Positions 42,854 to 62,568 of a DNA stretch of 64,000 bases are shown in pieces. The stretch comes from Monosiga brevicollis MX1 (Eukaryota > Opisthokonta > Choanoflagellata > Craspedida > Salpingoecidae), in assembly GCF_000002865.3 (NCBI RefSeq), contig NW_001865077.1:17820-81819 (forward strand), written 5' to 3'. The notes beneath the pieces were generated by a model. That model was not told the origin of the DNA, made no database searches, and saw nothing but the letters and a program-made list of their open reading frames with translations. The translations under genes and the position numbers were made by a program. How positions within the stretch are numbered: the first letter of the stretch is position 1; each line of letters opens with the position of its first letter.

Positions 42854-45800
42854 TCAATTCGAGTCCTCCAAATGAGATACGTTGGCCTCGGCGTCAGTGT
42901 CCAAGGCGGCGCTGTGACGCGTCGCCACTACGGGCGCTGGTTGCGGCGGTGATGCACCGGTCGAGGACTGAAAGTCAACCGGGTCGTAGACCTCCTCCGT
43001 AGAACCGGCCGACTCGCTGATGGGCGCATATGCCCCTCCAGACGCGGGGACCGCTCGCCAAGCCAAAACTGATAGCGCCACCAGGCTCATGGCTTGCAAC
43101 AAAACCAGCGCGCACAGTCCTCCGGCCGTGGTCTTGCTCGACGTCAAAACACCCAACAGACACAGACCCAGGACCAGCACCGAGGCCGCCGACGCGAGGA
43201 CCGGCACGGACACATCCGCCCGCGTCCGCGGGAATGCACCGGCCTGGGCACTCAAGCCGCGCAGCGCGTCCAGACACGCTAGGACCAACACCGTGAGCCA
43301 AAGGAGCCAGGCCACTGCCCATCGGCCGCGCGACGAGGGCTGCGCGCCATCGGGCAAAGTCGTCACCGCCGCCACGCCCACAAGGAACATGAGCGTCGCA
43401 TAGGCCCCGAGGTGCACGTAGCGCACCATCACGGGCGTGGCTGGATCCTGGCGCGCCACGCGCCAGCCCTGGTCCTGGGCCGACACCGCCCCGCAAAGGA
43501 GTGCAAAACAGGGCACGACACAGACCGCCGCCATAAAGTGCACCGCCGCGGCCGGCATCACAAACAGCAGCAACACCACCAAAGCCACCGACCACAGACG
43601 CGAGCTAGTCCAAAAGGCCAGCCAGCCTTGGGTACCAGAAGCCGCAACCACTCGCAACGAACCGGTCGCACCGGCACCCCCGAGCAAGCTGTTGGCCTCT
43701 TCGGAATGGTCCACAACCGATTGCTGCTTTCGGGCAGACCACCAGCGATACAAAACAACGCCAGCCCCCACAATGGTCAGCGTGACCAAAAATACCAGGC
43801 CCGCAACCGCCACCGGAGGCGTCGAACCACCGCACGAAGTTTCCTCCGCCGCACCGTAGTCACGCAGCACGTGGCGCAGCTCTACCACAAACACGTGCCG
43901 TGCATCCAGGCCCTCCCCGAGCGCGCTACCAATGGCGATCAAAACGCCGTACATACCCAGCGCCACCGGCCACGCTGCCGGTCGCCAAATGACGAGACCA
44001 GCGATAAGCAAGAACGTCAACGCAAAACACGCCGAGGCCAGGCGTCGTACTTTGCCCTCGTTGGGCACCGAGAATTGACCCTGCGATGCGTCGGAACCTA
44101 GTTCCAGATGCGTGGCATTGGAGTGGCAGGCCACGTGCTGGCCCACGGCAAACGCCAACGTTGCTGAAGCATGGTCTCGGCACTGGGCTTGCGTCTGCTC
44201 GGGGTGGCAAGCACCACGCCCGTCAATCTCAATCTCAGCCCACGTGGCTACGCTGCAGTCCGCCACCTCCAAGCAGTCGCTATCCGAACGCCCAGCCCCC
44301 GCAATCAAAGTCTGATCGGCCGGCCAGAACCGCACCTGCGAAGCCAAGCGCGTCGATCCATCCGTCACAAAGCTAAAGCCAGACAAAAACTGCACCTGCG
44401 GCTTGGCCATAACGTCGGCGGCGGCCGCCGCGGGTAACACGACCCCGGCAAAGTCCGATGTCAGGTTCATGCTCCAAGATGGCGCCCGCGTCGCTGTCGG
44501 CGTCGACAGAGCTTGCGCTTTCAGCACGCCCGCCGTGGCGACCTCGGCCTGTAGTTCAGGCAACGCCACAGCGACCGCACCGCGATGATTCACCGACACC
44601 ACACCCGAGGCGTTGAGCCAGTCCGCATCCAGAACCAGGTTGGAGTGCCCCAGCCCAAAACCCAGCGCATAGACACCATCGGCACCCACGCCCAACGTGC
44701 CAGAGCAGCCATGCGTCGCCTTCCAAGTTGCCTCGGTGTTGGCAGCCCCACTTGTCGAGGGCGCCAAGGTGGCCGAGATGGTGCCGGTAAAGCCATCCGC
44801 CGACTGAAGGCAATTGAGCTGCAGAGCTGCTTCCCGCATCGTCTCCGACGCAATTGACAGCGTCACATGGGCCGCTGCACCCATCAGCACCCGCGTGGCC
44901 GATAACGGCGGCAACGCGGTCGTCACTTGCAACTCAGCACCTTGCTGAGTCACGTTGCCGCTGGCGTTGAGATGCACGGCACTGGCGTGGGTGGCATCAA
45001 TTTGTGCCGCCACGCGCGTTACACGTGTGCCCGATAGCGTTTTTGTTGTTGTCGTCCGCATCAGCGCCATGCCTGTCACGTAGGCTGGGCACGCCGGCGC
45101 CGCCGCAGCTGCCTCCGTCACACCCAGAGTGCTCAGCTGCGCGCGCAACCACGCGGACAGCTTCAACTCGTCCGTGCGGGATGCCGAGCCCACGCAAGCA
45201 CCAGTCAGTGTCACTGCCGAGGCGTCTGAGAGTTGCACCGTGCCATTTGCTTGCGAAGTGTTCCATGGCACCGCAGCCACCCAGCTGTTGTTGACAGCGG
45301 GAGACCACTCGCAAGTTTGGCAGCCCACGAGCAGCACGCGCCCTCCAATCACGGCCGGGGAGCTGGTGACCAACCCAGGAACGGCCAGCACCAGGTCGGG
45401 CGCTGTGTCGCCCCCAGAGGCGACAAAGTTGACCGTGGCGGCAGCTGTGGCTGTGACATAGTTGTGCGCGGCTGAGCTTGTCACGCGCGTCCATGCGCTT
45501 GCGAAGACCGACGTGCCGCTGTCCGACGTCGTAGACACGTTGAGCTGGGTGCCAAAGGTCGCTGTTGCTTCCAAAGCCTCAAATCCGCCCACGGACCAAC
45601 TCACCGGCCAGTGCGCATCAGTCGTCACCAGCGTGGTGGGGGTGCTTCGCGGTGTATGTGTTATTTCCATCAGGGCCAAGGCCTCGCTCGCGTTACCAGC
45701 ACCCGCGACACGGAAGTTCAGCGCCTCGAGCGCCGTCAAGGAGCCGCCGCAGAAAGGGGCTGCCCATGTGGCTTTCGTTGGTGTCTGCGTACCACCCATG

Positions 45801-48800
45801 GCCTGCACCGCCACATGCAGCGCAACACCACTGGGCGCGGGCGCATCACATGCCAGCACGACCGTCGAATAATTGCCCGCGAGTGTCACGTTGGGGCGTG
45901 CGCCTGCTGTCGCGCTGCTCACCACCTCCAGCGTTAGAACGTTCGCCACGACGAGGCGGTCCGCTTGAATCGTGCGTGTCTGGGTAAAGGCCGGTTCGCT
46001 GAGGACAGCAGTACCAAGGCCTTGCACCGCCACATAGGCCGTGGCCTTGCCTACGTTCACACCGGTCAAGTCCGTCACGGCCAATCCCACTCGTCTCGTG
46101 CCGTTGACTGTTACAGGGCATCCGGAAATGGCTGTAAAGCCAAGCTCCTGGGCCTGCGACGCAAGTAGCCAAGGCATGGCGGGCGTGTGCGTGGTGTTGC
46201 TAGCCAGACACCGCTCGTTAAGACTCAATGGGCCCAAAGGATTGCCCGTGCTTAGAGCGGTGGCGCTGCCACTGAGCACAACGGTCGGTCCACTGGCATT
46301 CCAGAAAGCCGCAGATAAGTTGCAGTCGATGCAGTTGTGCAGCAGCGCGTTGGCGTCCAGCGCTTCAATGTCCCCGACCTGTAGCTGGCTCTCGCCAATC
46401 AGGGCCACATTGCTTGCCAGGGCGGTGCCCGTCATGTCCAGCTTCTGGGCAGACACGCGCAAGTTGGTCAGCTGTGACACCAAGAACTTGAACGTGCTGC
46501 CCAAGTTGATTTGACCATAGTCGGTGTAAGCCCGTGTCCACACGCTGAGATCAGACGCCGTGCTCACGTCCAACGTCGTGTTGGCGCCGCCATGCACCTG
46601 AATGGTGGAGGTCTTGTCCAAATCGGCCGACGTGAGCGTCAGCTGAATTGTCACGTTGCTGCTGCCCTCGCAATTGAGGGCCAGCGATGAGTCCTCATCG
46701 ATGGGCCCCAGACAATAGACTGTGTTGCTCACGCAATCCAGGGAAAAGCCGCCCCCACTGTGAACGACCTCGTGTTCGCAGGTGGCGTTGTCTGCCACTG
46801 CCGGCAGTGAAGGATCGTAGTGCAGCTCCACCAGGTCGTTGTCGTTGAAGGGCTCCGCATACAGGATGACCGTGTCCCCGGCCTTGATCGTGTTGGCCGA
46901 GTCCATGACAACGGGCGAGCCAAACGTGGCATAAAAGTTGTTGCCCACATGCGATTGGTTATCCACCAAGTTGCCCTGATTGACGGTCACCGAGCTCAAT
47001 GGAGCCCGCAAGGCCACGTCGTCCGAGGCGGGGCCCTGATCCACGGTCATCGGGCCCGTGCAGTTGCTGATGGTGGCAATGTCCTTGCCTCCGCCTTGTA
47101 CAACGCTCAGGCTAAGGTCGGCGCGGCAGCCCACAGCGTGCAGCTCGTCCCGACCGCCACCAGTCTGAATCAAAAGCTCGGCTGGTTGCACCACACTCAA
47201 CGGGCAGGTAGTGTTGCAGAGCTCGCTCAAACCAATAGCCTCAAGCTGATCACACAGCCACGTGGACGTCGGGTACCGCTGCAATAGGTCTGAAGCCGGG
47301 CGAACGCCACCTGCTCCATCGGGCACACCGACGCAAGCACCGGCCACCTGCAGTTTTTGGTCGGGCGCGTAGTCCTCCACCGCTCCCGGCACGGCCACAA
47401 TAACGGGTGCGCTGCCATGAAGAACCAGCACGCTGTACAAATGGGACAAAGGATCAAGAGGGTTGGCTGGGTGTGAGGGCGTGCCCACGACGACGGTGTC
47501 AAAGGCCGCGCCCGTGACAAGCGTGGGCCCCGTCGTGCCGCGCACGTGGATGTGACGACGCGGGGGTGTTGCAGCGACGGCGCGCATTGTGCGCCGCGAC
47601 GCTGACACCGAAGCCGCGTCCGTCAAGTTGACCATCGTGTTGGTCATAGGTTCCACCTCGCCCATCTCAAGGAGAGCTTGTGCCGGTACCGGGCCTTCCA
47701 GTCGCACTTGTGCCACGTGCGCCACCCGCACTCGTAAGAAACTGCGCTGGCTGGCACTGCGCACGTGCCAGGCGTCCTCGTCAGCTATAAGATGCAGGTC
47801 GGAAATGCCACTGGCGCCAACAGTGCTCGGATTGCTAGACGTACTCAAAATCAATGCATTCGTTTGATTCTGATAGGTCAGGCCGTTAAACGAGATGGCG
47901 CAGGTCAGGTCCAAAGCCGCGGGCAGCTCCACGCGGTGGATGCCGGCTGCGCGGGGCACGACAGCCCGGAAGGGCATGTTGTTGCATCCATCCACGACGT
48001 ACACGTGCGTGTGGCCATCGCTGCTGGTCGGCGCGACCAAAATGTCGGCCATGGTGACGGTGGGTGAAAAAGAGGGCACCGGGTCCGGCAATCCAGCTGG
48101 CAGCGGGGCACTGGCCAACTGCTGTGCGCATGCTGCACAGGGTTCAATGTGCGGGACCACTTCAATGTCGTCCCCCGGCACGACGCTGGAGACCACGAGA
48201 CTGCTGCTCGTGGCCTCGGCGTTAGCTTCAAAGAAGCGGATGGCACTCGGGTCAGCTGTGTCAGCGCTCTGAATGACGCCGTTCCCTGCCGGGGCGAGGC
48301 GCACGTGGTTCATGTCGGCACCAAGATCCACGGCACCAGAGCAAGGGAAGGTGCAGGTCACCTCATCATAGCCCTCGCCAAGAGTGGCCGTGACATTGGT
48401 CACGTTCTGCATGTGCAAACTATCCTCCCCGCTGCGCAGATCCAAGCTAATGGGCATGGGTGTGTCGAGCACAAACACTCGATCGGCACCGCCTCCACCA
48501 AGCAGGCGTACGGCCGTGTTGGCACCCAAGCGCAAAGGTGCTGCGCCCGCACAGAGAGCTGGATTCCACAAGCCGGCACAGAAGCGGGTGGACAGAGCAG
48601 GAGCACGCACTTGCCAGGCTGTGCCGTTGGGCAGGGCTTGGTAGACGCGGTTCTCTTGCACCAGCGTAAACTGGTCGGGTGCTGCACCAGCCGAGCCGGA
48701 TTGAAGGACCAACGAGGTCCAGCCCGTGGACCCGTCGGCCTCAACAATCACAGGGGCGCGAAGTGCACTGAGTGGATGAGTCAAGCACCAGCGACCGCCG

Positions 48801-51800
48801 GCACTGCAGTCACAGCCGGGCTCGAGGCTGGTCACGCAAGGATTGGGCCCCAGTGTGACGCCATGCACCATGCCTTGGATCAAGATCGGCGCATTTGTGC
48901 CCAAAACTGTTACATCGTTGCGCCAGACCCGGCGCGTGGGAATGAACTCTTCCGGCACGTTATCCGTGTGGTTGGCCATGATGATATGTACCTCAGTGCC
49001 ATATTGCGACACGTCCAACTCGTCATCAATGGTGAGTTGTCCATTGAGCTCAAGCACCAGCAAGTCCACGTGCGCAAAAGACAGGCGGAAAATATCCTCG
49101 GCCGGGCTCGCCGTGTCCACGACCGTCAACATGTTCCGACGCAACTCATACTGAAGCGTACGAGGGTCGCTCTGGGCCTGCACGCGCAGCGTCACGGTCT
49201 GGTCTGGTGTGGCATCGCCCGTTAACATGATTGTGCCTGCATGGTCGACCAAGGAGCCATCGGCCCCCACCAAAAAGTCGTGTGAACCAGAGCCGGTCAC
49301 GACGTATTTGAGTTGGGCACCCAAAGCACTCGCGGCCACGCGGTGTTCAGATGTGCTCTGCGTCGAGGCCACCAGGTTGAGCAGTGTCATTTGCCCAGCT
49401 CGGACCGAGTTCAAGAAGGTGCGGTAGTGTGCTCCAGCCGTGAGGTGCACGTTGAACAGGCGCACTTCAATATTACGCGTAAATGCGTAGCGAGCCGAAT
49501 TGTTGACTTCATGTGCAACCGTCTCCGTGCTGATGTTTGTCGAGCTGCCGTCCACGGCGGTCAGGGTGAGCGTGCAGCCGTCCTCGCCCGGACCACCGTT
49601 AAGCAGGACCGGTGCCGCCAGCGTGTCAAAGGCGGGCACAACAAAGTTGTCATTTTGAGTTTGGCCAACTACTTGCGTCGAGGTCTCGGGGCGCACCGAT
49701 GTGATGATAAAAGTGGTATCGTGCAGGTTTGAACCCAGAAGGCGAAGCGCGGAGATGAAGTCGGCTGTCGACAAGACCACATTCAGACCCGCCGAAGACG
49801 TGAGAGCATCGGCCGTCATCTCAAAGGCGGTGTCTTCCACGTTGATATCCAACGATTGCAGATCGGACACGGTCAAGGGGTGGGCGGCCACAAAATCAGA
49901 GCCTGCTTGTCCACGAAGCGTCACGTTGTTCGAGGAGATACTCTCGATCGTCACGGGACACCATAGGCGCGAAACGGCAAAGGTGCTGGCCACGTGGACG
50001 TTTTGCACGAGCATTGTGCCGCAATTTGACTGCGTCAGCAGGGAAAATGTACCCGTAGCTGCCACTCCTGCGGCAGTGAAGGCGAGTTGCGGGGCCGTGG
50101 GGTAGGCCTCAAGGTCGATGAGGACATGGAAGAGATTGCCCGCAGGCAGGCGCAGAGTGCTCGTCAGGCCAGCCACTAGAATATTGAAGGCCTTGCCGTT
50201 ATAGCTGTTGCCAGCAAAAGAGAGCGTGCCGGCCTTGAGCGTGCGGCTGCGCACGGGGTCTGTAGGTTCGGAGCCGGGGCTGACAGTGTCGCGCAACTGC
50301 ACGTTGGTCAAACCAGAGCCGACGGTGGTAACCTGCACGGTCAGCACGCTGTCGCTGGTGAACAGGGCGGCGGCCGGGTTGATGGCGCCTGCGCTCGAAA
50401 TTACAGGCATGGGCTGTGAAGTCCAGAACGGTTTGCGATACAGAACCCAGTAGTGGTTCCACTTCAAAACGGTCCAGCACATTTCGTGAAAGGGGATGGG
50501 GATACAGGCCTCGATGCCCGCGGTCAGGAAGGCATCCAACTCGGCCACGCCCGTGACCAGGCTCAACAGGTTACCACCGGCCTTCACCAGGGCCACCAAG
50601 TCGGCCACTTCAAGAATACCCGTGCCCTCAACGTCCTTGAGGCCGAAACTGATGGTACCGCGCAAACCCAGGCCGACCGAGCCCTTGAAAATGAGCACGC
50701 TCACATCAACCTGCACCCCGAAACCCACGTAGAACGACAGCGGGTAGAGTTGTCGTCCCGCGTCGTCTTTGACCCGCATGCCAAAGCGTTCCAGCAACTG
50801 AGCAGGGTCGCGTGAAGCAACGGCGGTGGTGAGGGCTGAGAATGGCAGTGAGAGGTGGATGGGTTGCACGGTCAAACCAATGTCCAGTGCCGCCTCAACC
50901 ATGACAAGGGGAACACTCCAAACAATGTAAGGGCCAAAGGGTACGCTTGAACCCAAGGAGAAGGAGGGAAGCTGAAGCGACACGAGGTCATAGGGAACTT
51001 CGTTACCCAGGAGCAAATCCTCGGCGATGGTTTCAAGATGATGCAGGAAGGGGAAGGTAATGCAAAAGCTGGCGCCGGGACTTGGGTTGATGCCGCGTGC
51101 GAGAAACTCGCTGAGCTGCTGTGTCACCATATTCTTGATTCCGTCTGGGGTTGTATCGTTTTTGAACTGCGGAATCGGAGACGAGGGAACGGTCCGGTTC
51201 AACAAGCTCAGAGCGTAGTTCAAGCTAAAGTTGCCGAGGTCGAGCACCGCCGGGTACTGGGAAAGAGAATACACCAAGTTTTCAACCTTCATCAGGTCCT
51301 TCTCAATCGAATCAAAGCGATCCATAAAGGTGATCATGGCCTTGACCATGGCAGAGTGGGTGCTGGCCTTGAGCTTGGAGAGAAGCTCTGCGATGGTCCA
51401 AGCCCGGCCGACGAGGTAACGGAGCAGCTCGAGGTGGGTATTCAAAATGTCGTAGACCTCGCGAGCTGGCTTGAGATACTTTTCCAACTTGTCCCACAGC
51501 ACCTGCTGTAGGTAAGTGAAGTAGGCCCCGAGATGCAGAGCCAAGCTGGTGTGCATGACTGGCGGTGCCAAGGGGTGACCAATTGTCACGTTGGAGGTCA
51601 GACTAAATTCGCCCTCCAAGTACGGCAGGTTGGTGCTTAGCGCCTTTTGCTGCACAAAGCCGAGACGTGCATCGGCTTGGAAATATTGCTTTGACTTGAG
51701 CATGAACTCGTCGGGCATGTTCGAGGAGCTGGAAGATGACTCAGCAATGGCGCTCGTCCTGAAAGAGCGGCGACGGCGCAGGTTGGTATCCCGATTGATA

Positions 51801-54800
51801 TCTTCCAAGTCATGCTCGATGCTTTGGCACTTGCGAGCCAAGTTTGGGCTCAGGATCATCAGAAGCTCCATGAGGCCCTTGCCGCCACTGAACCAATCGT
51901 CGTCCTCAAAGGCCTTGACAAGGTCCTCAACCATGAGTGGCACCTCCGAGGCGAGATGCGTGTCGCGCAGCAGGGTCCAGGCAAAAAAGGGCAGGGCGGC
52001 TTCGGGATCCAGCATCTCGAGCAGCGTGGTTACGAGATCCGTCACAATGAGGTTGATGAGCTCGCCACCCATGGCGGTCAGCGCCTGGTGCAATTCATCC
52101 GACGTGATGTTTGGATTGGACAGCAACATCACGGCCAAGCGGGTGCCGTCACCCTGAACAGCATGGGCTGCGTCTTGGCCAGTTTTGGCCAAGCCACCGC
52201 GGATGATTTTAAGCATGCCAGCAGCCTGGTAACTGGGCTTGACTGAGCCTTCTTTGGGGAGTGAAATTTCACACTCGAGCTGCTTGACCGAATCCACAAC
52301 GGCCTGGACATCGCCAAAGGCAGTGCGCAGGGCCTGATAGCCCGCAAAAATGGGCGTGACCACGCCAGTGCGCAGAGCTTCGAGATCGGCTGGCAGATCA
52401 TCCGTCAGATCGGGCATGTTGATGGACGCAAAGCTCTTCTCTGCCACGTCAATTTGATGCAAGATGTCTTCAACCCGCTGTTCGTCCTGCTCCAGCACGG
52501 CCGTAAGGTTGGTGCGACAGCCATCCGAGAACTGAAGCCCCGTGCATGAGGAGAGAGTGCCCTCGAGTAGATGCAGGAGATCGTCCACCACCTCGACGGT
52601 ATTGCGGCGCGTTCGCGCCTGTGGGACGGCTGAACGGCGCAGGCGCCGATCGGCGACGGCTGCCTCGGCTTCAGCACCTCCCCGTGCTTGCTGGCGCGCA
52701 GCGGCTACGTCCGAAGGCGGCGTGCCGCTCGTGGCGCCGACACCAAACATGACGGAGAGGCCTGCGTCAACGTGGAGGTCGGCCCCCAAGAATGCCAGGC
52801 GGCCGGTCATGAAATCGTTGATGCCCAAATCGGCAGAGAAGATGACAGCAGGATCGGAGAGGAACTGAAAGGTCAGACCAAAGTGTTGCGTCAGGCCAAG
52901 ACGTACAGGCATGCTGAGGGACACATCAGACGTGATTGTGTCTGTTGACTGCAGGTGCAGAAAGCGCAAGCCACCCAGATTATTATGCACGTGTGTGTGC
53001 TGCACCGTGCTGGCCTTGCCAAAGACAAAATCCCACGTGCAGACATCGGCGCACAGTTGAAAGCTGTACGAGTCGGGCATGGCCACTGGAGGCGGCGGGC
53101 AGCCGGAGAGCAGGTAGGGAGTAAAAGTCTTGCAGAGGGCGTCGGTGATTTCCTGCAGAATGATTTGGCGCAGCTTATAGACGTCATTGAGGATCGTCTG
53201 ATTCAGGCTCTGTATGACCTGCACAATGCGGTTGGCGTTTTCCGTGAGAGCCTGCTGCGTCTGAGGTCCCGTTATTTCGGCCAAGGTTTTGGTGATGTGA
53301 GCATCGTAGTCGTTTTGCACCAAAGGCAGCTCGACGCCATCGCTAAAGGCGCCCCCAGCTTGATAAAGCACGCGCGGGCCCACTTCGGAGAGGCGCTGCA
53401 TTTGCGCTACCAGCCGCGCGGGGTCGGCGAAAAAGCTGACGATGTCATGGCGGTGCAGCATGTCGGTCAAGCGCCAAGGAAAGCCGCCATCACCGCACAG
53501 GATCTGTTCCAGCTCAATGCCCCGGGCACCATTGGACAGCAAGTACTCAGAGTCGGTGCGAATGTCGACGAAGCAGTCTGGCGCCAGCTCCATGGACGGC
53601 TCAGCCGTAAAGTGGCTGGATGCATTGAGCGCCTCCAACTCGTACACGGCACCAACAGCGGCATGAACGTGGAGGTCAGCCGACAGTTGCGCAGAGGTGC
53701 GCTCAAATTGGATCGGCAGCATGCCAAAGTACAAAAGTTGGTCGCCCTTGATATCATAATTCACCGCCAGCTTCATGGTCGTGTTGCGCAGCTGCAGCGT
53801 GTCCAGCGTGGCGTCGGTAAAGTTGAACACAAGCTGTGAGTGAAAAGTGCCACTGTAGACGAGCGTCAGGTGGTCTGTCTCGCCCTCACCGAGGGGAAGC
53901 GTCTGATTGCCGGTCAGATTGCCTTCGGCTGGCTGCGGCGTAAGGTGGAACAATTCGTTGGTTTCAAAGACGAGGCCCGCGGGCAGCGTCGCATTGTTGA
54001 TCGCAAAGGCCAGGTCGACGGTGACCAGGTCCTCTTCCGGACGAAGGACGATGGCTTGGCAAACATTGATGCCAAAGACGGATGCAAACTGGTCGCACAG
54101 CTGGCGCAAATCCTGCACCTGGCCCTGGGAGCACTGCTGCTGAAGCCGCGCGATCTTGTCCTCGAAAACGAGGTTGTAGAGCTTGAGAAGACTCTCGTCA
54201 ACCATGGCAAGGGGGTGTTGTAAGGCCGGGATGGCGCGGATGGAAGCATCCAGGTCCGCAAGGAGATCTAGCTCCTCGCACAACTCAGTCGCGTTTTCCA
54301 AAGATAGGCGCTCAAAGAGAGCGCGGGTGGGGCCTTGAAACGTGGCGTTGAGGGTCCCAAGATCAACAAGTAAGGCCTGCAGGCTGGTGCTGTCAGAGGC
54401 ACTGCCGGCCGCATTGACCGAAAACATGAGCTCGGGTTCCACTTGTTCGCCTTGCTCCACAACGTTGATGGTGACGTTGGCGGCCGTCACGGTACCAGAA
54501 GCTGCAGCCTCGATTTCAAAGTATTCAGGGTACGTGGCCATCTGGCGCAGACTGGCCAGGCATTGAGTGGTGGTGGCCACGGTGGGCACCAGACCAAAGG
54601 CAAAGTTGAAGTTGGTGTGCGCCTGGCACCCGGAGTAGGAGCTGGGGATGATGCCAATATCACCGGGACCATCAAAGGCGGCAGCTAGAACACCGTCCAC
54701 CCGCACATCAGCCTGGTGAAGGATGGCGGCGGAAAAGAACGGCTTGTACAGATGCGGGTGAAAGTAGGCTAGCGAGGCGGTGGCGGTCACTGGCTGCACA

Positions 54801-57800
54801 CCCATAACGGTGGGAATGACCCATGCGTTCTCGCCTTCCTGCACGCCATCAAAGTCCAGGACGACTTGCGCAACGGAGTCGGCAAACCGAGGGTTGGCAG
54901 GAGCTACGGAGACGTTGATCATGCTGGCAAACGGGGCCGGTAGAGCCGGGGGAATGGCCGCGAGCAGGGCAGACTGAACAGTGGCGCCCGTATTGAGGGG
55001 CAAGACCACGTGCACGTTGGCCGACAGCGGCGTGATGGTCAAGGCGCCGGGCTCACAAAACTCGCCAGCCAGCTTTGAGCAGACGCGGCGTTCAGCGGCC
55101 ACGACGATGACAAACTCGTTGCCGTCTGAACTGACTGGCTCTTGCAGCTGCGTGGCGTTGGTAAAGTTGGTCTCAAGGCGATACCAGGACACGTTATCGT
55201 GGGTCTCAGCACCGGCAAGGTCGGGCGTTTGATAGACGATGCCGTAAGAGACGTTGACACATTGATGAAGGGAGACCACAGCAGCAGTGGTGGCAGGTCG
55301 CACGCGAGTGTTGCCTGCGGCGACTGTGGCGTTGATGTTGCTGGGCACGGTACCGACTGTACAGGCTTCAAAGTGACTGCGCCAGGCAGGAAGACGCGCG
55401 GGCAACAGCGAGCGCAGGGCGGCGGGAGCTAGGTCATCCGGGGCAAACTGGCTCAGATCCAGACTCTCGGTACGGGGCTTGTAGTAACGAGTCAGGTCAG
55501 GTTGGTACAGCATCTGGTAGAGGTAAGCAGCATCGGTGAGGGAGCCAGCAGTGGCCACGCGCTGAAAGGAAGTTTGACCATCAAACACGGGGCTGTTCTG
55601 GGTGTAGGTGGAGACCGTGACGGCGTAGGCGCCGCCAGTGCCAAGGGTACGCAAAGTAAATTGGCCGCAAAGCTGTTTGGCCTGATTCCGCTGCACCTTG
55701 GTAAGAACGACATCCAGGAGCCAATCGAGATCGCAATCGGCAAGGCCGTTGTTGAGAGCTTCAGACGCGGCCTCCAGGCTGCCGTAAGTCATGGGCATGG
55801 TGCAGTTGGTCAGCGGGCGACCGTTGACCGAGACGCTGAGGCCGAGCGTTTTGGCATAGCTGCCGGCGGGGCAAACGAGTTCCGTGGTCGCCACCTCGAG
55901 GTTGGACATGGAGAGCGGCTGCAGGGCCCAGAGGGAGACGTTGCCAAAGTCAGCGGCGTAGGAAGAGAGGTTGGTCAAGGTATTGACGAGACCTGGGGCT
56001 GGAGCTTCCACATGTTGGAGAGCATCAGGCACCAGGCGGACGAGGCTTTGGCTGAGGAGGTCATGCAGGAAGGCCTGGCTGGCGGAGTGGGGTTCGTCCG
56101 TGTCAGAGGACCAAACCATCGAAGTGGCGCTGTTTGCGCGGGTGTAGCAGGTGGCGGTGCTCAGGGGGCCGGTTGGGTCGTTCTTACACAAGCTGGAGGC
56201 GTCGTTGGAAGAGGCACGATTGTCGATGGCGCCCGTCAGGGTGGTGTTGGTGTCGGTGGTCAGGGCGACACGGACGTTGACCTCGGCATCGACGATGCTG
56301 ATGATGTCCTGATCTGAGTAGGAGTGGATGTCGAGGCGGGCCTGGTAAGAGCTGTTGCGAGAAATCCCGTGCATCATGTCCTTGGCCACGGGGAGGGCCA
56401 GGTGGGTGGCCAGGGTGTTGCCGGTAAGGTGGGAGTCAAAGTCAAAGCCGCGAAAGTCAAGGCGCATGGTGGAGTTTGTGACGAGAAGGGTGGGAAGCTG
56501 GAGGCGAGCGGTGCCGACAACGTCGCGGGTGCCGATGCGATCGCCGCTCATGGACATCCAATGCAGGGAGACGGAGTTGATGGTCAGCAAAAAGCCGTCA
56601 TTGTAGGAGGAGCGGCCATAGACGAGCACGTTGTCGAGGTCTGAGGTCCAAGCACCGAGCGTGGCATCAAAGCGGTGAGCCACGTCGCTCATGAGGGTTG
56701 ATCGAACGTTGCCAATGTCTGCCAACAGGGCAGCAAGGGCACCCTGGACGTTGGCTTGATCAACGACAATGTCAAAGACGTTGGCGGCTTGGCTGACGGC
56801 AAAGTATTCAAAGACGTATTGCTGAAGGTATTCGAGATTGTCACGATAGTGCTCAAGGAGGAACTCGTTGGTCCACTCAAAGTCCCACCACCACCACCAG
56901 TAGTCGTTCCAGTAGACGCAGAACATTTCCTCGCTCCACCACATGGGCCAGTCCCGGGGGCAGTTGTCACAGTTGTTGGGCGTGTAGCGAACGTGGACGG
57001 CGTTTTCGTCGACGTTGCCGGTGACGGCTTTGACGGCAACCGTGAGAAAGACAGGGTAGTAGCGCTCGTTGCGATCAAAGTCCTGTTGAGACACTGTCTG
57101 CATGTGCCACTGCAAGGGGGCATCCAGAGCCCAAGCGTTGGGATTGGCGGCAAAGTTGTCGAGGCGACCGATAAAGGCGACCAAGAGATCGTTTTGGGCG
57201 GTGGTGGCGCCGTCGAGCTTATTCTCGTAGTAGTATTCCTCCCAGGCCTCGGGAAAGCTGAAGTAGTCAATGTAACCTCTGAAGTTGTCAGCGACGGCGG
57301 CTTGAACACGAGAAAAGTCGACGCTGGCGTCGAGGCGCGCGCCCGTGGCAGTGAGATGAAGACCAATCTGGGCGACAAGTCGCTGACCCGTGTGATCAAT
57401 GTACATTTGGAGGCCTAGGCGTTGGGCCACGTAGGCAATGGCGCCGGGCGTATGCGGATGCTTGCGTAGACCGGCGTACTGGGTGAGGAGGGGCTGGATG
57501 ACCGTTGGACCGAGGTGGGCCGCCAGCATGGCATTGGCATACGTGTTTCCAGTGTCGAGGGCGCGGGTAAGGAGGGAGTTGAACACGGCAGCAGCCGGGG
57601 CAGTATCCAAGGTGGTGGCGGCGGTCACGGGGATGAGGGCTCCGCCCTCAGCGGCTTCGTTGAGGCTGTAGGGGAGCGCGAAGAGGGCTTGGTCGCTCGA
57701 GGCGGCTGGGGTGGGAAACAGCAGGCCACGAAGATGGCCAGAGACGTTGGCAGGGATGCGGTTGACAAAGGCCCACAAGGCTTGGTCGTTGCCGGTCACG

Positions 57801-59056
57801 AGGTCGCTATGGGCTGTGACTTGGAGGTGGTTGCCTTGGGTGGAGAGGTGTAGGTCAAGGAGGAGGTCGCCCTCGGCGCAGCGAATGGTGGCCCAGGTTT
57901 GACTGTGCACGCCGACGACCTGGAGAAGGGCGGCATCGGTTGTGACGGCGGTGGCCACGGTGGCGCGCGCCCCAAAGGCCTCGGGGACGAGGGTGGGGTT
58001 GGAGCAAGCCGGAGTGGCATGCGCCACCTCGTAGAGGAGGGCGTCCGGGATGCTGGGACAGGAGTTGGGGTCGGCACATTCCAAGGAGGAGCGGCAGAGG
58101 CGGTCCAAGCCGCTGCTGCTTTGGCCGTAACATTCCGTGGACATGGGTGCATGCAAGGCGTGTAGAAAGACGGGGCGCAAATGCCAAGCGGTGGTGGTGG
58201 AAGCGTCGAGACCGTGGAGGCGCGTGGGGGTGAGCATGGCGCGGGCCAGCTGCGTTTCCAAGGGCGTGGGATTGACGGGTTGGGTGGCCATGGGCGTGGT
58301 GTAAAACTGGGTCCCGTCGCGCAGGTCCATGTCGAGGAGGAGGGCGCTTGGGCCGCGGGCCCAGAGGTGGCCTTGCAGGAAGGGAGGGCTGTCGGTGAGG
58401 GCATTCCAGTCGCCGGCGGCATGGGCGTTGAGTTTGACAATAGCAGTCGCGCCCGTGTAGGGAGCCGTGGCGAGTGCGAACGACAGCTCCATCTGGGCCT
58501 GCAGCAATTGGCAGGTTTTTTGGGTGTTGCCAGTGCAGGCGCTAATAACCAAGGAGCGTTGGACCTGCAACGGGCACAACGAGGTGCAGGCAAAAAAGGG
58601 GGTGAGGAGAATATGCGCGCGTGTGTGTGTGTGTGTGTGTGTGCGCGCGGGCGGGCGCGTTGAAGTGTTGGAAGGCCTGCGATCCAGGCTTGAGGGGCTG
58701 GGTCTTGAAGGAGAGCTTTGACGCACCTGGGCCGTGTAAGTGGAGGCATTAAAGGCCAGGGAAAGGATGGCGGTGCTGTTGGCGACGCACGGCAAGGCGT
58801 TACAAGCGGCCGGCAGCCATGACCAAGAGATGGCGTCGCCCGTGAGACTGTCGAGAGATTGTGCATTCAAGGCATCTTCCCAACTCTTCAGGGCCAGGTT
58901 CAAGGCGGCGGCGTCGTCATCGCCATTGGTCGGGGTTGAACAGCTGGCCAGCAATAACAGGCCAACCGTCACCCACCAAACTGGCGTTGACCACCGTCTA
59001 CCCCCGCCACGACCCGACCGCCGACCGGCAGCCGTCGCGGCGGCAACACCGACCAT
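42854..59056 (-). CDS. Giant membrane protein: about 4,900-residue ectodomain and about nine C-terminal membrane segments
   Basis: The ATG at 59056 has a perfect Kozak context (GGCCATGG); the frame upstream opens only at a TTG. One intron (58726-58565, 162 nt) leaves 5,346 residues, almost all in one 15.7-kb exon. A signal sequence (VTVGLLLLASCSTP) leads into a region rich in N-glycosylation sites. Residues up to about 2,900 are mixed alpha/beta, with dibasic sites near 2081 (RRLRRSAVPQARTRR) and 2373 (NLRRRRSFR). Beyond that the sequence is Thr/Val/Asn-rich, beta-helix-like, with RTX-like GGGGADRVFVLD near 3463 and a Cys motif repeated near 3853, 4227 and 4564. About nine hydrophobic segments lie at about 4951-5286 (e.g. 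ALTFLLIAGLVIW, VALVVLLLFVMPAAAV), then a 60-residue acidic tail ending LEDSN. I do not recognise the family. A huge ectodomain plus multi-pass anchor suggests an adhesion or sensory receptor; this is inference. Confidence 0.88.
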   Translation of the reverse strand: MVGVAAATAAGRRSGRGGGRRWSTPVWWVTVGLLLLASCSTPTNGDDDAAALNLALKSWEDALNAQSLDSLTGDAISWSWLPAACNALPCVANSTAILSLAFNASTYTAQVRQSSPSRPSPSSLDRRPSNTSTRPPARTHTHTHTRAHILLTPFFACTSLCPLQVQRSLVISACTGNTQKTCQLLQAQMELSFALATAPYTGATAIVKLNAHAAGDWNALTDSPPFLQGHLWARGPSALLLDMDLRDGTQFYTTPMATQPVNPTPLETQLARAMLTPTRLHGLDASTTTAWHLRPVFLHALHAPMSTECYGQSSSGLDRLCRSSLECADPNSCPSIPDALLYEVAHATPACSNPTLVPEAFGARATVATAVTTDAALLQVVGVHSQTWATIRCAEGDLLLDLHLSTQGNHLQVTAHSDLVTGNDQALWAFVNRIPANVSGHLRGLLFPTPAASSDQALFALPYSLNEAAEGGALIPVTAATTLDTAPAAAVFNSLLTRALDTGNTYANAMLAAHLGPTVIQPLLTQYAGLRKHPHTPGAIAYVAQRLGLQMYIDHTGQRLVAQIGLHLTATGARLDASVDFSRVQAAVADNFRGYIDYFSFPEAWEEYYYENKLDGATTAQNDLLVAFIGRLDNFAANPNAWALDAPLQWHMQTVSQQDFDRNERYYPVFLTVAVKAVTGNVDENAVHVRYTPNNCDNCPRDWPMWWSEEMFCVYWNDYWWWWWDFEWTNEFLLEHYRDNLEYLQQYVFEYFAVSQAANVFDIVVDQANVQGALAALLADIGNVRSTLMSDVAHRFDATLGAWTSDLDNVLVYGRSSYNDGFLLTINSVSLHWMSMSGDRIGTRDVVGTARLQLPTLLVTNSTMRLDFRGFDFDSHLTGNTLATHLALPVAKDMMHGISRNSSYQARLDIHSYSDQDIISIVDAEVNVRVALTTDTNTTLTGAIDNRASSNDASSLCKNDPTGPLSTATCYTRANSATSMVWSSDTDEPHSASQAFLHDLLSQSLVRLVPDALQHVEAPAPGLVNTLTNLSSYAADFGNVSLWALQPLSMSNLEVATTELVCPAGSYAKTLGLSVSVNGRPLTNCTMPMTYGSLEAASEALNNGLADCDLDWLLDVVLTKVQRNQAKQLCGQFTLRTLGTGGAYAVTVSTYTQNSPVFDGQTSFQRVATAGSLTDAAYLYQMLYQPDLTRYYKPRTESLDLSQFAPDDLAPAALRSLLPARLPAWRSHFEACTVGTVPSNINATVAAGNTRVRPATTAAVVSLHQCVNVSYGIVYQTPDLAGAETHDNVSWYRLETNFTNATQLQEPVSSDGNEFVIVVAAERRVCSKLAGEFCEPGALTITPLSANVHVVLPLNTGATVQSALLAAIPPALPAPFASMINVSVAPANPRFADSVAQVVLDFDGVQEGENAWVIPTVMGVQPVTATASLAYFHPHLYKPFFSAAILHQADVRVDGVLAAAFDGPGDIGIIPSSYSGCQAHTNFNFAFGLVPTVATTTQCLASLRQMATYPEYFEIEAAASGTVTAANVTINVVEQGEQVEPELMFSVNAAGSASDSTSLQALLVDLGTLNATFQGPTRALFERLSLENATELCEELDLLADLDASIRAIPALQHPLAMVDESLLKLYNLVFEDKIARLQQQCSQGQVQDLRQLCDQFASVFGINVCQAIVLRPEEDLVTVDLAFAINNATLPAGLVFETNELFHLTPQPAEGNLTGNQTLPLGEGETDHLTLVYSGTFHSQLVFNFTDATLDTLQLRNTTMKLAVNYDIKGDQLLYFGMLPIQFERTSAQLSADLHVHAAVGAVYELEALNASSHFTAEPSMELAPDCFVDIRTDSEYLLSNGARGIELEQILCGDGGFPWRLTDMLHRHDIVSFFADPARLVAQMQRLSEVGPRVLYQAGGAFSDGVELPLVQNDYDAHITKTLAEITGPQTQQALTENANRIVQVIQSLNQTILNDVYKLRQIILQEITDALCKTFTPYLLSGCPPPPVAMPDSYSFQLCADVCTWDFVFGKASTVQHTHVHNNLGGLRFLHLQSTDTITSDVSLSMPVRLGLTQHFGLTFQFLSDPAVIFSADLGINDFMTGRLAFLGADLHVDAGLSVMFGVGATSGTPPSDVAAARQQARGGAEAEAAVADRRLRRSAVPQARTRRNTVEVVDDLLHLLEGTLSSCTGLQFSDGCRTNLTAVLEQDEQRVEDILHQIDVAEKSFASINMPDLTDDLPADLEALRTGVVTPIFAGYQALRTAFGDVQAVVDSVKQLECEISLPKEGSVKPSYQAAGMLKIIRGGLAKTGQDAAHAVQGDGTRLAVMLLSNPNITSDELHQALTAMGGELINLIVTDLVTTLLEMLDPEAALPFFAWTLLRDTHLASEVPLMVEDLVKAFEDDDWFSGGKGLMELLMILSPNLARKCQSIEHDLEDINRDTNLRRRRSFRTSAIAESSSSSSNMPDEFMLKSKQYFQADARLGFVQQKALSTNLPYLEGEFSLTSNVTIGHPLAPPVMHTSLALHLGAYFTYLQQVLWDKLEKYLKPAREVYDILNTHLELLRYLVGRAWTIAELLSKLKASTHSAMVKAMITFMDRFDSIEKDLMKVENLVYSLSQYPAVLDLGNFSLNYALSLLNRTVPSSPIPQFKNDTTPDGIKNMVTQQLSEFLARGINPSPGASFCITFPFLHHLETIAEDLLLGNEVPYDLVSLQLPSFSLGSSVPFGPYIVWSVPLVMVEAALDIGLTVQPIHLSLPFSALTTAVASRDPAQLLERFGMRVKDDAGRQLYPLSFYVGFGVQVDVSVLIFKGSVGLGLRGTISFGLKDVEGTGILEVADLVALVKAGGNLLSLVTGVAELDAFLTAGIEACIPIPFHEMCWTVLKWNHYWVLYRKPFWTSQPMPVISSAGAINPAAALFTSDSVLTVQVTTVGSGLTNVQLRDTVSPGSEPTDPVRSRTLKAGTLSFAGNSYNGKAFNILVAGLTSTLRLPAGNLFHVLIDLEAYPTAPQLAFTAAGVAATGTFSLLTQSNCGTMLVQNVHVASTFAVSRLWCPVTIESISSNNVTLRGQAGSDFVAAHPLTVSDLQSLDINVEDTAFEMTADALTSSAGLNVVLSTADFISALRLLGSNLHDTTFIITSVRPETSTQVVGQTQNDNFVVPAFDTLAAPVLLNGGPGEDGCTLTLTAVDGSSTNISTETVAHEVNNSARYAFTRNIEVRLFNVHLTAGAHYRTFLNSVRAGQMTLLNLVASTQSTSEHRVAASALGAQLKYVVTGSGSHDFLVGADGSLVDHAGTIMLTGDATPDQTVTLRVQAQSDPRTLQYELRRNMLTVVDTASPAEDIFRLSFAHVDLLVLELNGQLTIDDELDVSQYGTEVHIIMANHTDNVPEEFIPTRRVWRNDVTVLGTNAPILIQGMVHGVTLGPNPCVTSLEPGCDCSAGGRWCLTHPLSALRAPVIVEADGSTGWTSLVLQSGSAGAAPDQFTLVQENRVYQALPNGTAWQVRAPALSTRFCAGLWNPALCAGAAPLRLGANTAVRLLGGGGADRVFVLDTPMPISLDLRSGEDSLHMQNVTNVTATLGEGYDEVTCTFPCSGAVDLGADMNHVRLAPAGNGVIQSADTADPSAIRFFEANAEATSSSLVVSSVVPGDDIEVVPHIEPCAACAQQLASAPLPAGLPDPVPSFSPTVTMADILVAPTSSDGHTHVYVVDGCNNMPFRAVVPRAAGIHRVELPAALDLTCAISFNGLTYQNQTNALILSTSSNPSTVGASGISDLHLIADEDAWHVRSASQRSFLRVRVAHVAQVRLEGPVPAQALLEMGEVEPMTNTMVNLTDAASVSASRRTMRAVAATPPRRHIHVRGTTGPTLVTGAAFDTVVVGTPSHPANPLDPLSHLYSVLVLHGSAPVIVAVPGAVEDYAPDQKLQVAGACVGVPDGAGGVRPASDLLQRYPTSTWLCDQLEAIGLSELCNTTCPLSVVQPAELLIQTGGGRDELHAVGCRADLSLSVVQGGGKDIATISNCTGPMTVDQGPASDDVALRAPLSSVTVNQGNLVDNQSHVGNNFYATFGSPVVMDSANTIKAGDTVILYAEPFNDNDLVELHYDPSLPAVADNATCEHEVVHSGGGFSLDCVSNTVYCLGPIDEDSSLALNCEGSSNVTIQLTLTSADLDKTSTIQVHGGANTTLDVSTASDLSVWTRAYTDYGQINLGSTFKFLVSQLTNLRVSAQKLDMTGTALASNVALIGESQLQVGDIEALDANALLHNCIDCNLSAAFWNASGPTVVLSGSATALSTGNPLGPLSLNERCLASNTTHTPAMPWLLASQAQELGFTAISGCPVTVNGTRRVGLAVTDLTGVNVGKATAYVAVQGLGTAVLSEPAFTQTRTIQADRLVVANVLTLEVVSSATAGARPNVTLAGNYSTVVLACDAPAPSGVALHVAVQAMGGTQTPTKATWAAPFCGGSLTALEALNFRVAGAGNASEALALMEITHTPRSTPTTLVTTDAHWPVSWSVGGFEALEATATFGTQLNVSTTSDSGTSVFASAWTRVTSSAAHNYVTATAAATVNFVASGGDTAPDLVLAVPGLVTSSPAVIGGRVLLVGCQTCEWSPAVNNSWVAAVPWNTSQANGTVQLSDASAVTLTGACVGSASRTDELKLSAWLRAQLSTLGVTEAAAAAPACPAYVTGMALMRTTTTKTLSGTRVTRVAAQIDATHASAVHLNASGNVTQQGAELQVTTALPPLSATRVLMGAAAHVTLSIASETMREAALQLNCLQSADGFTGTISATLAPSTSGAANTEATWKATHGCSGTLGVGADGVYALGFGLGHSNLVLDADWLNASGVVSVNHRGAVAVALPELQAEVATAGVLKAQALSTPTATRAPSWSMNLTSDFAGVVLPAAAAADVMAKPQVQFLSGFSFVTDGSTRLASQVRFWPADQTLIAGAGRSDSDCLEVADCSVATWAEIEIDGRGACHPEQTQAQCRDHASATLAFAVGQHVACHSNATHLELGSDASQGQFSVPNEGKVRRLASACFALTFLLIAGLVIWRPAAWPVALGMYGVLIAIGSALGEGLDARHVFVVELRHVLRDYGAAEETSCGGSTPPVAVAGLVFLVTLTIVGAGVVLYRWWSARKQQSVVDHSEEANSLLGGAGATGSLRVVAASGTQGWLAFWTSSRLWSVALVVLLLFVMPAAAVHFMAAVCVVPCFALLCGAVSAQDQGWRVARQDPATPVMVRYVHLGAYATLMFLVGVAAVTTLPDGAQPSSRGRWAVAWLLWLTVLVLACLDALRGLSAQAGAFPRTRADVSVPVLASAASVLVLGLCLLGVLTSSKTTAGGLCALVLLQAMSLVALSVLAWRAVPASGGAYAPISESAGSTEEVYDPVDFQSSTGASPPQPAPVVATRHSAALDTDAEANVSHLEDSN
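58619..58641 (+). repeat. (GT)n microsatellite in the only intron of the giant gene
   Basis: The run reads CA on the gene's sense strand and lies between the GTGCGT donor (58726) and the TTGCAG acceptor (58565). Confidence 0.9.
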
Positions 59057-61329: not shown

Positions 61330-61501
61330 GTGAGTCAGCGAGACACACAGAGAGACACAGAGAGAGACACACACAGAGAGAGAGACAGAGACACACAGAG
61401 AGACACACAGAGAGACGCAGAGAGAATCGCAGAGAGAATCGCAGAGAGAATCGCAGAGAGAATCGCAGAGAGACACACAGAGAGAGAGACACACACAGAG
61501 A

Positions 61502-61535
<34 letters not shown>

Positions 61536-61682
61536 CACACACACAGAGACACACACAGAGACACACAGAGGGACGCAGAGAGAGACGCAGAGAGAATCGC
61601 AGAGAGAGACACACACACAGAGATACACAGAGAGACACACAGAGAGAGAGACACACACAGAGACACACAGAGAGAGAGACGA
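61330..61682 (+). repeat. Compound GA/CA array (gagacacacaga and gagaatcgca units)
   Basis: Includes four adjacent 12-bp units of gagaatcgcaga near 61419-61465 and recurring 'gagacacacagag' words, giving long repeat-encoded open frames on both strands. Confidence 0.9.
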
Positions 61683-61777
61683 GTCAGTCCGCCGCTTCCC
61701 CTCCTGCTTCCCTTTTCTACCATAATCTTGAATAGTACTACCTAATCTTGAATTTGACCTTTTTGAATGTGTGTCAG

Positions 61778-62146
61778 TCTCTCTCTCTAAATCTCTCTAA
61801 ATCTCTCTCTCTCTCTCTCGAAATCTCTCCCTCTATGTCTCTCTCTCTCTCTAATCTCTCTCTTCTCTCTCACCAATTCATTCTCTCTCCCTCTCTCCCT
61901 CTCTCTCTCTTCTCTGTCTCTTCTCTCTCGCTTCTCTCTCTTTTCTCACTCTTTTCTCTCTCTCTTTTCTCACTCTTTTCTCTCTCTCTTCTCTCTCTCT
62001 TCTCTCTCTCTTCTCTCTCTTCTCTCTCTCTTCTCTCTCTTCTCTCTCTTCAAAACGTTCTCACACACACACACACTCTCACTCTCACTCTCTCACTCGC
62101 TCACTCTCTCGCTCTCTCCCACACACACACACACACACACACACAC
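61778..62146 (+). repeat. CT-rich array (ctctctt units) followed by (CA)n
   Basis: Degenerate CT repeat to about 62052, CT/CA mixtures to 62118, and a pure CA run at 62120-62146, ending 12 bp before the ATG of the ankyrin gene. Confidence 0.9.
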
Positions 62147-62157
62147 GTTGGGGCGTC

Positions 62158-62568
62158 ATGTCGTCGCAAAGTCGAGATGGCAGTGGGGGAGGTCGGGGAC
62201 GTCGTCGGGGGCAGCAGGAGGATGAATGGGAGGAGCATGGCGCTGCTGGGGTAGAGGAGGATGGTGATGGTGGTGGTGGTGGTGGTGGTGGTGGTGGTGG
62301 TGGTGGAAGTCACAAGCGGCCGCCGAGAGAGCCGCGACCTCGGTCTCACATGAGCGGGACGCCGTTACATGCTGCCGCCTCCTCGGGTAACCTTGGCACC
62401 CTCGTAGTACGTGCTGTTGGACCGTATGCCCTGGCACCTCTCCCTCTCCCTCTTCCTCGCGTTGCCCAGCTGATTGGCAGGCCCCATGATCTTTGTATTG
62501 AACCCTCTCCCTCACTCACTCGTGCCCCGCGCGTTTGGCTCGGTCGGGTGGGTCCCGTCCGCGCGCGC

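What the first reader, a model, noticed from the sequence alone, without database searches (positions are those of the whole stretch)
42854..59056. Unrecognised 5,346-residue multi-pass membrane protein
The protein has a signal sequence, about 4,900 extracellular residues without any domain I can name, then about nine hydrophobic segments and an acidic tail. Known choanoflagellate giants (cadherins, PA14/EGF receptors) are usually single-pass, and adhesion GPCRs and polycystins have recognisable domains before the membrane part. A huge ectodomain of this kind on a multi-pass anchor could be a new receptor or adhesin family.
Basis: partly seen in the sequence, partly recalled or inferred. Interest (0 to 1): 0.85.

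Follow-up and report, generated by a model that had tools for sequence, protein, structure and literature searches.

The report
Bacterial-type giant protein, membrane-anchored, in choanoflagellate
A single-celled relative of animals carries a 5,346-residue protein whose outer part is related to giant secreted proteins of cyanobacteria and other bacteria but ends in about nine membrane segments, which looks like a bacterial surface protein captured and re-used, as has been proposed for the animal teneurins.

Summary
A 16-kb minus-strand open frame (59056-42854) with one in-frame intron encodes 5,346 residues: signal-like start, about 4,900-residue ectodomain, about nine hydrophobic segments, acidic tail. 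Pfam, NCBIfam, PDB sequences and the rest of its genome give no usable match. Yet residues 1887-2799 are homologous to a ~670-residue module of giant bacterial secreted proteins: a profile of 46 bacterial rows, none from this protein, scores 95 bits (E 4.4e-27); the best of 100 shuffles scores 7.5. Three bacterial modules searched against the whole 39.5-Mb genome each returned only this frame. The module occurs in 45 of 291 genomes sampled from one cyanobacterial class. The region after it has six RTX-type GxGxD motifs (0 of 5,000 shuffles reach six). The only three furin-type sites lie in an insert inside the module. Best reading: a captured bacterial giant surface protein made eukaryotic by signal peptide, glycosylation and cleavage sites and a multi-pass anchor. 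Direction of transfer, topology and function are inferred; structure prediction failed.

The parts
58727..59056 (-). coding exon 1: ATG, signal-like sequence (residues 1 to about 40) and residues up to 110
   Evidence: signal sequence by eye
58565..58726 (-). in-frame 162-bp intron GTGCGT...TTGCAG
   Evidence: the only in-frame candidate with a negative coding score
42854..58564 (-). coding exon 2, 15,711 bases, residues 111-5346 and stop
53255..58936 (-). N-terminal ectodomain, residues about 41-1880 (interrupted by the intron); no significant relatives; one weak, non-significant partial module copy at about 1527-1745
52775..53236 (-). bacterial-type module, first segment (residues 1887-2040)
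51710..52774 (-). insert in the module (about residues 2041-2395), helical by eye, with R-x-R/K-R sites near both ends
52604..52645 (-). furin-type sites RLRR (2084-2087) and RTRR (2094-2097)
51767..51778 (-). furin-type site RRRR (2373-2376) before a serine run
50498..51709 (-). bacterial-type module, second segment (residues 2396-2799), the best-matching part
44075..50497 (-). C-terminal ectodomain (residues 2800-4940), rich in Ala, Leu, Thr and Val; six GxGxD motifs between 44678 and 49594
43055..44041 (-). about nine hydrophobic segments (residues 4952-5280)
42857..43054 (-). acidic C-terminal tail (residues 5281-5346), cytoplasmic if the segments number nine; contains YAPI and YDPV (YxxPhi-like, motif recalled)

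Best explanation
A single-copy giant cell-surface protein of a choanoflagellate, derived from a bacterial (cyanobacterial-type) giant secreted protein by horizontal transfer. Shown here: the central module is homologous to the bacterial module; the region after it carries RTX-type GxGxD motifs, as the bacterial relatives scanned carry RTX repeats there; almost the whole protein is one exon; the ectodomain is enriched in N-glycosylation sites; the only furin-type sites lie near the two ends of an insert in the module; about nine hydrophobic segments end the protein. Inferred: a signal peptide brings it into the ER; it is glycosylated; a furin-like protease cuts at both ends of the insert and leaves a two-chain ectodomain; the multi-pass domain replaces the bacterial secretion route as the anchor; the ectodomain, stiffened by beta structure and perhaps by calcium, works as an adhesin or capture surface for prey bacteria, matrix or other cells, and sorting motifs in the tail recycle it.
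For: Homology: hhalign of 5 bacterial rows against residues 1901-3100 of the unspliced frame gave probability 96.2, E 2.6e-9, 339 columns. A second run gave E 2.4e-7, while the four other segments of the protein gave 0.18-0.61, the reversed sequence 0.12, 20 of 20 shuffles 0.22-0.94 and the PA14 neighbour 0.7. A 46-row profile gave E 4.4e-27 for an assumed 20,000 sequences, 95.0 bits; best of 100 shuffles 7.5 bits, reversed 0.0. Direct blastp at E<=0.01: 8 of 26 bacterial frames match, all 8 between residues 2407 and 2822. Whole-genome searches with three bacterial modules returned only this frame: E 4.5e-4, 1.1e-3, 8.1e-5 (3 of 3). RTX: 6 GxGxD in the tail against 0.68 expected, 0 of 5,000 shuffles; 0 in the N-part, the module, the reversed tail and the PA14 neighbour; in the three bacterial relatives scanned, the best RTX stretch lies after the module. 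Distribution: 45 of 291 genomes of one cyanobacterial class, two of them already found as seeds or by the scan. Secretion genes (HlyD or TolC) lie near the bacterial gene in 3 of 8 plasmid loci, one of the 8 being unannotated. Eukaryotic adaptation: 62 N-x-S/T sites in the ectodomain against 34.5 expected, 0 of 2,000 shuffles; the reversed motif gives 43. Furin-type sites: 3 in the protein, all in the insert; 13 of 2,000 shuffles of the ectodomain reach 3 sites.
Against: The N-terminal 1,880 residues show no significant relation to the bacterial N-parts. The tail shows none by profile: a three-row profile scored the protein above all 100 shuffles, but this was lost from the second iteration on (also 114). 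Module position is not diagnostic: in eight bacterial proteins it starts anywhere from residue 18 to 3426. Pfam's RTX model does not hit, and the GxGxD test was framed after a scan in which one of nine pattern-region combinations stood out. The insert is unrelated to bacterial inserts near the same point. Charges do not settle the topology: 10 K/R in the loops that would be inside, 9 in those outside, and the segment number is uncertain. Codon usage resembles the neighbouring PA14 gene (RSCU correlation 0.85 without M, W and stops; 0.46 with all codons), so no trace of recent transfer. The unrooted tree is unresolved: support 70 and a branch of 2.6 substitutions per site. Structure models were poor (pLDDT 54 and 38); the fold search gave nothing at E<=0.001. 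No other eukaryote could be searched. Function is untested.
Confidence: 0.65

Rival explanations
1. An old eukaryotic family: the module was present in early eukaryotes, or moved from eukaryotes to bacteria, and this choanoflagellate merely kept it.
For: 14-21% identity to the bacterial rows and a very long branch mean great age or fast change; no other eukaryotic genome could be searched; host-like codon usage.
Against: One copy found in this genome against 45 of 291 genomes of one cyanobacterial class, in many different giant frames; the 15.7-kb exon fits a prokaryotic single-frame origin.
Confidence: 0.15
2. A signalling receptor first: the multi-pass part is a divergent GPCR-, polycystin- or transporter-like domain and the ectodomain is its sensor, as in adhesion GPCRs.
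For: Large ectodomain before a multi-pass part; acidic tail.
Against: No Pfam match in the C-terminal 2,408 residues of the frame. The only NCBIfam match there is DsbB at 18.1 bits (E 0.002) against a cut-off of 168, over the first two hydrophobic segments.
Confidence: 0.2
3. The resemblance to the bacterial module is compositional convergence of long amphipathic strands and helices, not homology.
For: Identity is only about 20%; the lead came from memory while reading this protein.
Against: Controls; co-linear match over most of the module with one insertion; three genome-wide searches return only this frame.
Confidence: 0.03
4. Two neighbouring genes: ectodomain and membrane part are not one protein in the cell.
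For: No transcript data here.
Against: One open frame and no in-frame intron candidate with a negative coding score near the boundary.
Confidence: 0.03

Closest known systems
Giant bacterial secreted proteins carrying the same module: LEPR-XLL protein of Thalassospira marina (WP_101286450.1), Geminocystis WP_066122221.1, Dolichospermum WP_168204493.1
   Same: Giant length; the ~670-residue module (E 4.4e-27); an RTX or RTX-like region after it; large inserts near the same point of the module in L080, L083 and L084
   Different: Here a signal-like start, N-glycosylation sites, furin-type sites, a multi-pass anchor and no RTX array that Pfam detects
Teneurin of Monosiga brevicollis
   Same: Works-like parallel: a bacterial extracellular YD protein proposed to have been taken over by a choanoflagellate, with almost the whole ectodomain on one huge exon (passages of PMC6297184)
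   Different: EGF and YD repeats and a single type-II membrane segment in teneurin; no teneurin match here. Not a member.
Adhesion GPCRs and polycystin-1
   Same: Giant ectodomain on a multi-pass anchor
   Different: No Pfam match to their domains

Membership tests
bacterial LEPR-XLL / RTX giant secreted proteins | central ~670-residue module | tested here: met
   E 4.4e-27 with a 46-row bacterial profile
bacterial LEPR-XLL / RTX giant secreted proteins | RTX nonapeptide array (PF00353) after the module | tested here: inconclusive
   Pfam model does not hit; GxGxD enriched in the tail, 6 against 0.68
bacterial LEPR-XLL / RTX giant secreted proteins | LEPR-XLL N-terminal motif (NF012209) | tested here: not met
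   no NCBIfam match; of two bacterial relatives scanned, one has it
bacterial LEPR-XLL / RTX giant secreted proteins | export without membrane anchor (type I secretion, recalled) | tested here: not met
   about nine hydrophobic segments at the C-terminus
adhesion GPCR | GPS/GAIN plus 7tm domain | tested here: not met
   no Pfam match at E<=10 in the C-terminal 2,408 residues
polycystin-1 | REJ/PKD/PLAT/GPS and 11 membrane segments (recalled) | tested here: not met
   no such Pfam match; about nine segments
teneurin | EGF repeats, beta-propeller, YD repeats | tested here: not met
   no such Pfam match
cadherin or PA14/EGF choanoflagellate giants | cadherin, PA14 or EGF repeats | tested here: not met
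   no such Pfam match, whereas the neighbour at 19476-24986 matches PA14 and EGF above and cadherin below the cut-off

The most novel reading that the evidence does not exclude
The whole ~4,900-residue ectodomain came as one unit from a cyanobacterial-type giant gene, was fused to a multi-pass membrane domain of unknown ancestry, and gained a furin-excised insert: a second teneurin-like capture of a bacterial giant surface protein among the closest relatives of animals, giving a new class of multi-pass giant surface protein.
Probability: 0.42. Interest if true: 0.85.

Novelty: new variant of a known kind. Interest (0 to 1): 0.72.

Why it matters
Teneurins, which help to wire animal nervous systems, have been proposed to descend from a bacterial giant protein captured by a choanoflagellate (passages of PMC6297184). 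A second, unrelated bacterial giant protein turned into a eukaryotic membrane protein would suggest that such capture is a recurrent source of giant surface proteins near the origin of animals. It also points to a bacterial module that no Pfam-A or NCBIfam model covered in the two relatives scanned, and makes a question testable: is the module adhesive in both bacteria and choanoflagellate?

Tried and rejected
Plus-strand reading of the coordinates: full of stops. Internal repeats: none above a reversed control (best 0.5 against 0.091). Rfam and tRNA scans of the window: nothing. Searches with this protein for relatives in other collections: viral contigs with both halves, phages with the C-terminal 2,908 residues of the frame only, plasmids without the N-terminal 1,200: no relative; three plasmid matches at E 3-6 and one PDB match at E 2.6 are taken as chance. 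Two weak matches elsewhere in the own genome (L012 E 0.031, L015 E 0.049) were not followed up. Flanking DNA of the contig (L002-L009) was fetched to look for tandem copies and not examined, since the genome-wide searches found none.

Extra module copies in the N-part: one suggestive stretch at about 1527-1745 (E 0.034; E 0.021, against 0.34 reversed), not above shuffles (best 0.0098). One phmmer match outside the module (residues 1269-1316 against L076, domain E 0.011) was taken as chance. Tail against the Dolichospermum tail repeats: 8.6 bits against a best shuffle of 2.5, lost on iteration. Pontibrevibacter N-part and tail by single-sequence hhalign: nothing. Insert against the inserts of three bacterial members: E 0.66. 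AlphaFold: pLDDT 54.2 for the bacterial module, 37.9 for residues 2457-2942 of the unspliced frame; the PDB fold search of the former gave 177 matches at E<=10 and none at E<=0.001, with query TM-scores of 0.04-0.14 in the 50 rows shown, so no fold is claimed. Of the 28 bait matches the 23 from Rhizobium (those listed at E 0.1-0.2) were dropped as chance. Of 67 frames with module hits 46 entered the profile after filters on length and coverage and removal of identical rows.

Literature (search listings only unless stated). No listed paper, by title and start of abstract, describes this protein or this module in choanoflagellates; the library lacks most subscription journals. Passages read: PMC7971027, PMC6428715, PMC12716839, PMC6297184, PMC4046809.

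Full report
WHAT IS THERE. The minus strand holds one open frame from 59080 to 42854. The first ATG is at 59056. A GT-AG intron at 58726-58565, 162 bases and in frame, is the only in-frame candidate that scores as non-coding (-4.9; next +0.6). Mean codon score favours this frame (0.23 against -0.40, -0.35 and -0.07), with two of 90 windows below zero: the first 60 codons and the intron (the reference was trained on this ORF). The protein begins with a short hydrophobic, signal-like stretch (by eye; hydropathy peak 1.25). Its ectodomain has 62 N-x-S/T sites against 34.5 expected (0 of 2,000 shuffles; the reversed motif gives 43). It ends with about nine hydrophobic segments at residues 4952-5280 and an acidic tail. 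One stretch of 50 residues was counted as two segments and the second segment is weak, so the number could be eight to ten. Charges do not decide the orientation: 10 K/R in the loops that would be inside, 9 in those that would be outside.

SETTING. The neighbour at 19476-24986 matches PA14, EGF and TIG above and cadherin below the Pfam cut-off, which with a 39.5-Mb genome fits a choanoflagellate; the species was not told and this is inference. Codon usage of the giant frame resembles that neighbour (RSCU correlation 0.85 without M, W and stops; 0.46 with all codons), GC3 is higher (0.718 against 0.604), and the intron is GT-AG, so the gene looks resident and not a contaminant.

NO KNOWN DOMAIN, NO PARALOGUE FOUND. 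Pfam-A at E<=10 gives only sub-cut-off matches, E 0.025 or more; NCBIfam the same, the best being DsbB, E 0.002, 18.1 bits against a cut-off of 168, over the first two hydrophobic segments. PDB sequences: one chance match at E 2.6. Searches of the own genome with five pieces find the gene itself plus two weak matches, E 0.031 and 0.049.

THE LEAD AND ITS TEST. Reading residues ~2400-2800 I was reminded of giant bacterial surface proteins. A 97-residue bait written from memory found 28 plasmid records at E<=1. The five that were not Rhizobium were fetched: Geminocystis, Dolichospermum, Gloeothece, Microvirga and a LEPR-XLL protein of Thalassospira. They share a ~670-residue module. hhalign of these five rows against residues 1901-3100 of the unspliced frame gave probability 96.2 and E 2.6e-9. 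In a second run, with E 2.4e-7 for this region, the four other segments, the reverse, 20 of 20 shuffles and the PA14 neighbour gave E>=0.12. Wider sampling gave 67 frames with hits, of which 46 entered a profile (overlapping loci leave some near-duplicates: 44 distinct bacterial rows after trimming). The profile, which contains no sequence of this protein, matches it at E 4.4e-27 for an assumed 20,000 sequences (95.0 bits; best of 100 window-shuffled copies 7.5 bits; reversed copy 0.0). The match runs from model position 39 to 615 of 669, residues 1887-2799, with one insertion of about 350 residues after position 191. Because the lead came from looking at this protein, I also asked the whole genome: three bacterial modules (Dulcicalothrix, Thalassospira, Iningainema) each returned one place, this frame (E 4.5e-4, 1.1e-3, 8.1e-5; 3 of 3).

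THE BACTERIAL FAMILY. At E<=1e-15 the module occurs in 45 of 291 genomes sampled from the class of Dulcicalothrix (the genomes of L025 and L026 among the 45); 42 of the 56 listed matches lie in frames of 2,000 residues or more (a few frames counted twice), up to 11,299. In the class of Rubellimicrobium only the seed genome of 385 matched. In 13 of 24 long frames with the module there are further partial copies of about the first 260 positions upstream, at domain E<=0.001. In the three proteins scanned with Pfam the best RTX stretch follows the module. HlyD or TolC genes lie near it in L021, L022 and L023 of eight plasmid loci (L020 has no annotation). L080, L083 and L084 have large inserts after about position 186-214. 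The choanoflagellate insert is unrelated to them (E 0.66), so the site seems to accept inserts.

THE REST OF THE ECTODOMAIN. Among eight bacterial proteins the module starts anywhere between residues 18 and 3426; in three of them (Thalassospira 1659, Pontibrevibacter 1804, Gloeothece 1812) it starts about where it does here, so position alone says little. Homology of the N-part and the tail is not shown. The tail does hold six G-x-G-x-D motifs, the core of RTX repeats (recalled), against 0.68 expected (0 of 5,000 shuffles); none occur in the N-part, the module, the reversed tail or the PA14 neighbour, and a seventh lies in the membrane part. The test was framed after a broader scan in which one of nine pattern-region combinations stood out, so it supports but does not prove a degenerate RTX region.

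PROCESSING. The protein has three R-x-R/K-R sites in all, at 2084, 2094 and 2373, all within the insert and near its ends (13 of 2,000 shuffles of the ectodomain reach three sites anywhere). A furin-like protease would cut out some 280 residues and leave two chains. This is inference from motifs.

HOW IT MOST LIKELY WORKS. Shown: module homology, single giant exon, glycosylation-site enrichment, cleavage-type sites in the insert, about nine hydrophobic segments. Inferred: secretion into the ER, cleavage, plasma-membrane display, adhesion or prey capture, and recycling through YxxPhi-like motifs in the tail (YAPI, YDPV) and an E-A-N-S-L-L stretch in the loop after segment 3 (motifs recalled; short motifs are weak evidence). 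I rate capture of a bacterial giant gene as likely, adhesive function as plausible, direct signalling as possible.

DIRECTION AND AGE. An unrooted tree of the second module segment joins this protein to two Rhodobacterales rows, but with support 70 and a branch of 2.6 substitutions per site. It is 14-21% identical to the bacterial rows. That is old or fast divergence; the donor cannot be named. The parallel is the teneurin of Monosiga brevicollis, whose third exon encodes almost all of an ectodomain closest to bacterial YD proteins (passages of PMC6297184); another author favours a different route for teneurin (passages of PMC6428715). In Salpingoeca rosetta at least 175 candidate transfers were reported (start of abstract; passages), and in M. 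brevicollis 405 genes closer to prokaryotes and/or algae, more than 80% of them with introns (passage), so transfer as such is common and introns do not exclude it.

WHAT FAILED. Structure prediction was too poor to use (mean pLDDT 54.2 and 37.9) and the fold search found nothing at E<=0.001. The membrane part has no known relative in any search made here, and its family is open. No other eukaryote could be searched and no transcript was at hand.

VERDICT. Novelty: a new variant of a known kind (bacterial giant RTX/LEPR-XLL-type secreted proteins), in a eukaryote and with a new anchor.

Noticed in passing
19476-24986 (-): 1,836-residue open frame with PA14, EGF (teneurin-type EGF models) and TIG matches and a cadherin match below cut-off: a choanoflagellate-type surface protein, open over 5.5 kb.
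   Followed up: partly
4166-5341 (+): TPR-repeat frame, with a sub-cut-off match to the nephrocystin-3 TPR model.
   Followed up: no
28669-30027 (+): Frame with a partial ammonium-transporter match (42 residues), perhaps one exon of a transporter gene.
   Followed up: no
12050-12513: Tandem repeat of 222 bases, about 2.1 copies, inside frame 11840-12604, which has only weak Pfam matches.
   Followed up: no
61336-62306: About 1 kb holding several CA/TC/GA-rich simple repeats, some 2.3 kb upstream of the giant gene's ATG.
   Followed up: no
L084, within residues 2150-2760 of its 4,644-residue frame: The insert in this cyanobacterial module contains GHSLGA (seen), a lipase/hydrolase-like motif (recalled): bacterial members may carry enzymes at the insertion site.
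   Followed up: no
L018, L021, L024, L072-L077, L079, L082, L085, L086: 13 of 24 long bacterial frames carry partial copies (about model positions 1-260) of the module upstream of the full copy; no Pfam-A or NCBIfam model covers the module in the two relatives scanned with both.
   Followed up: partly
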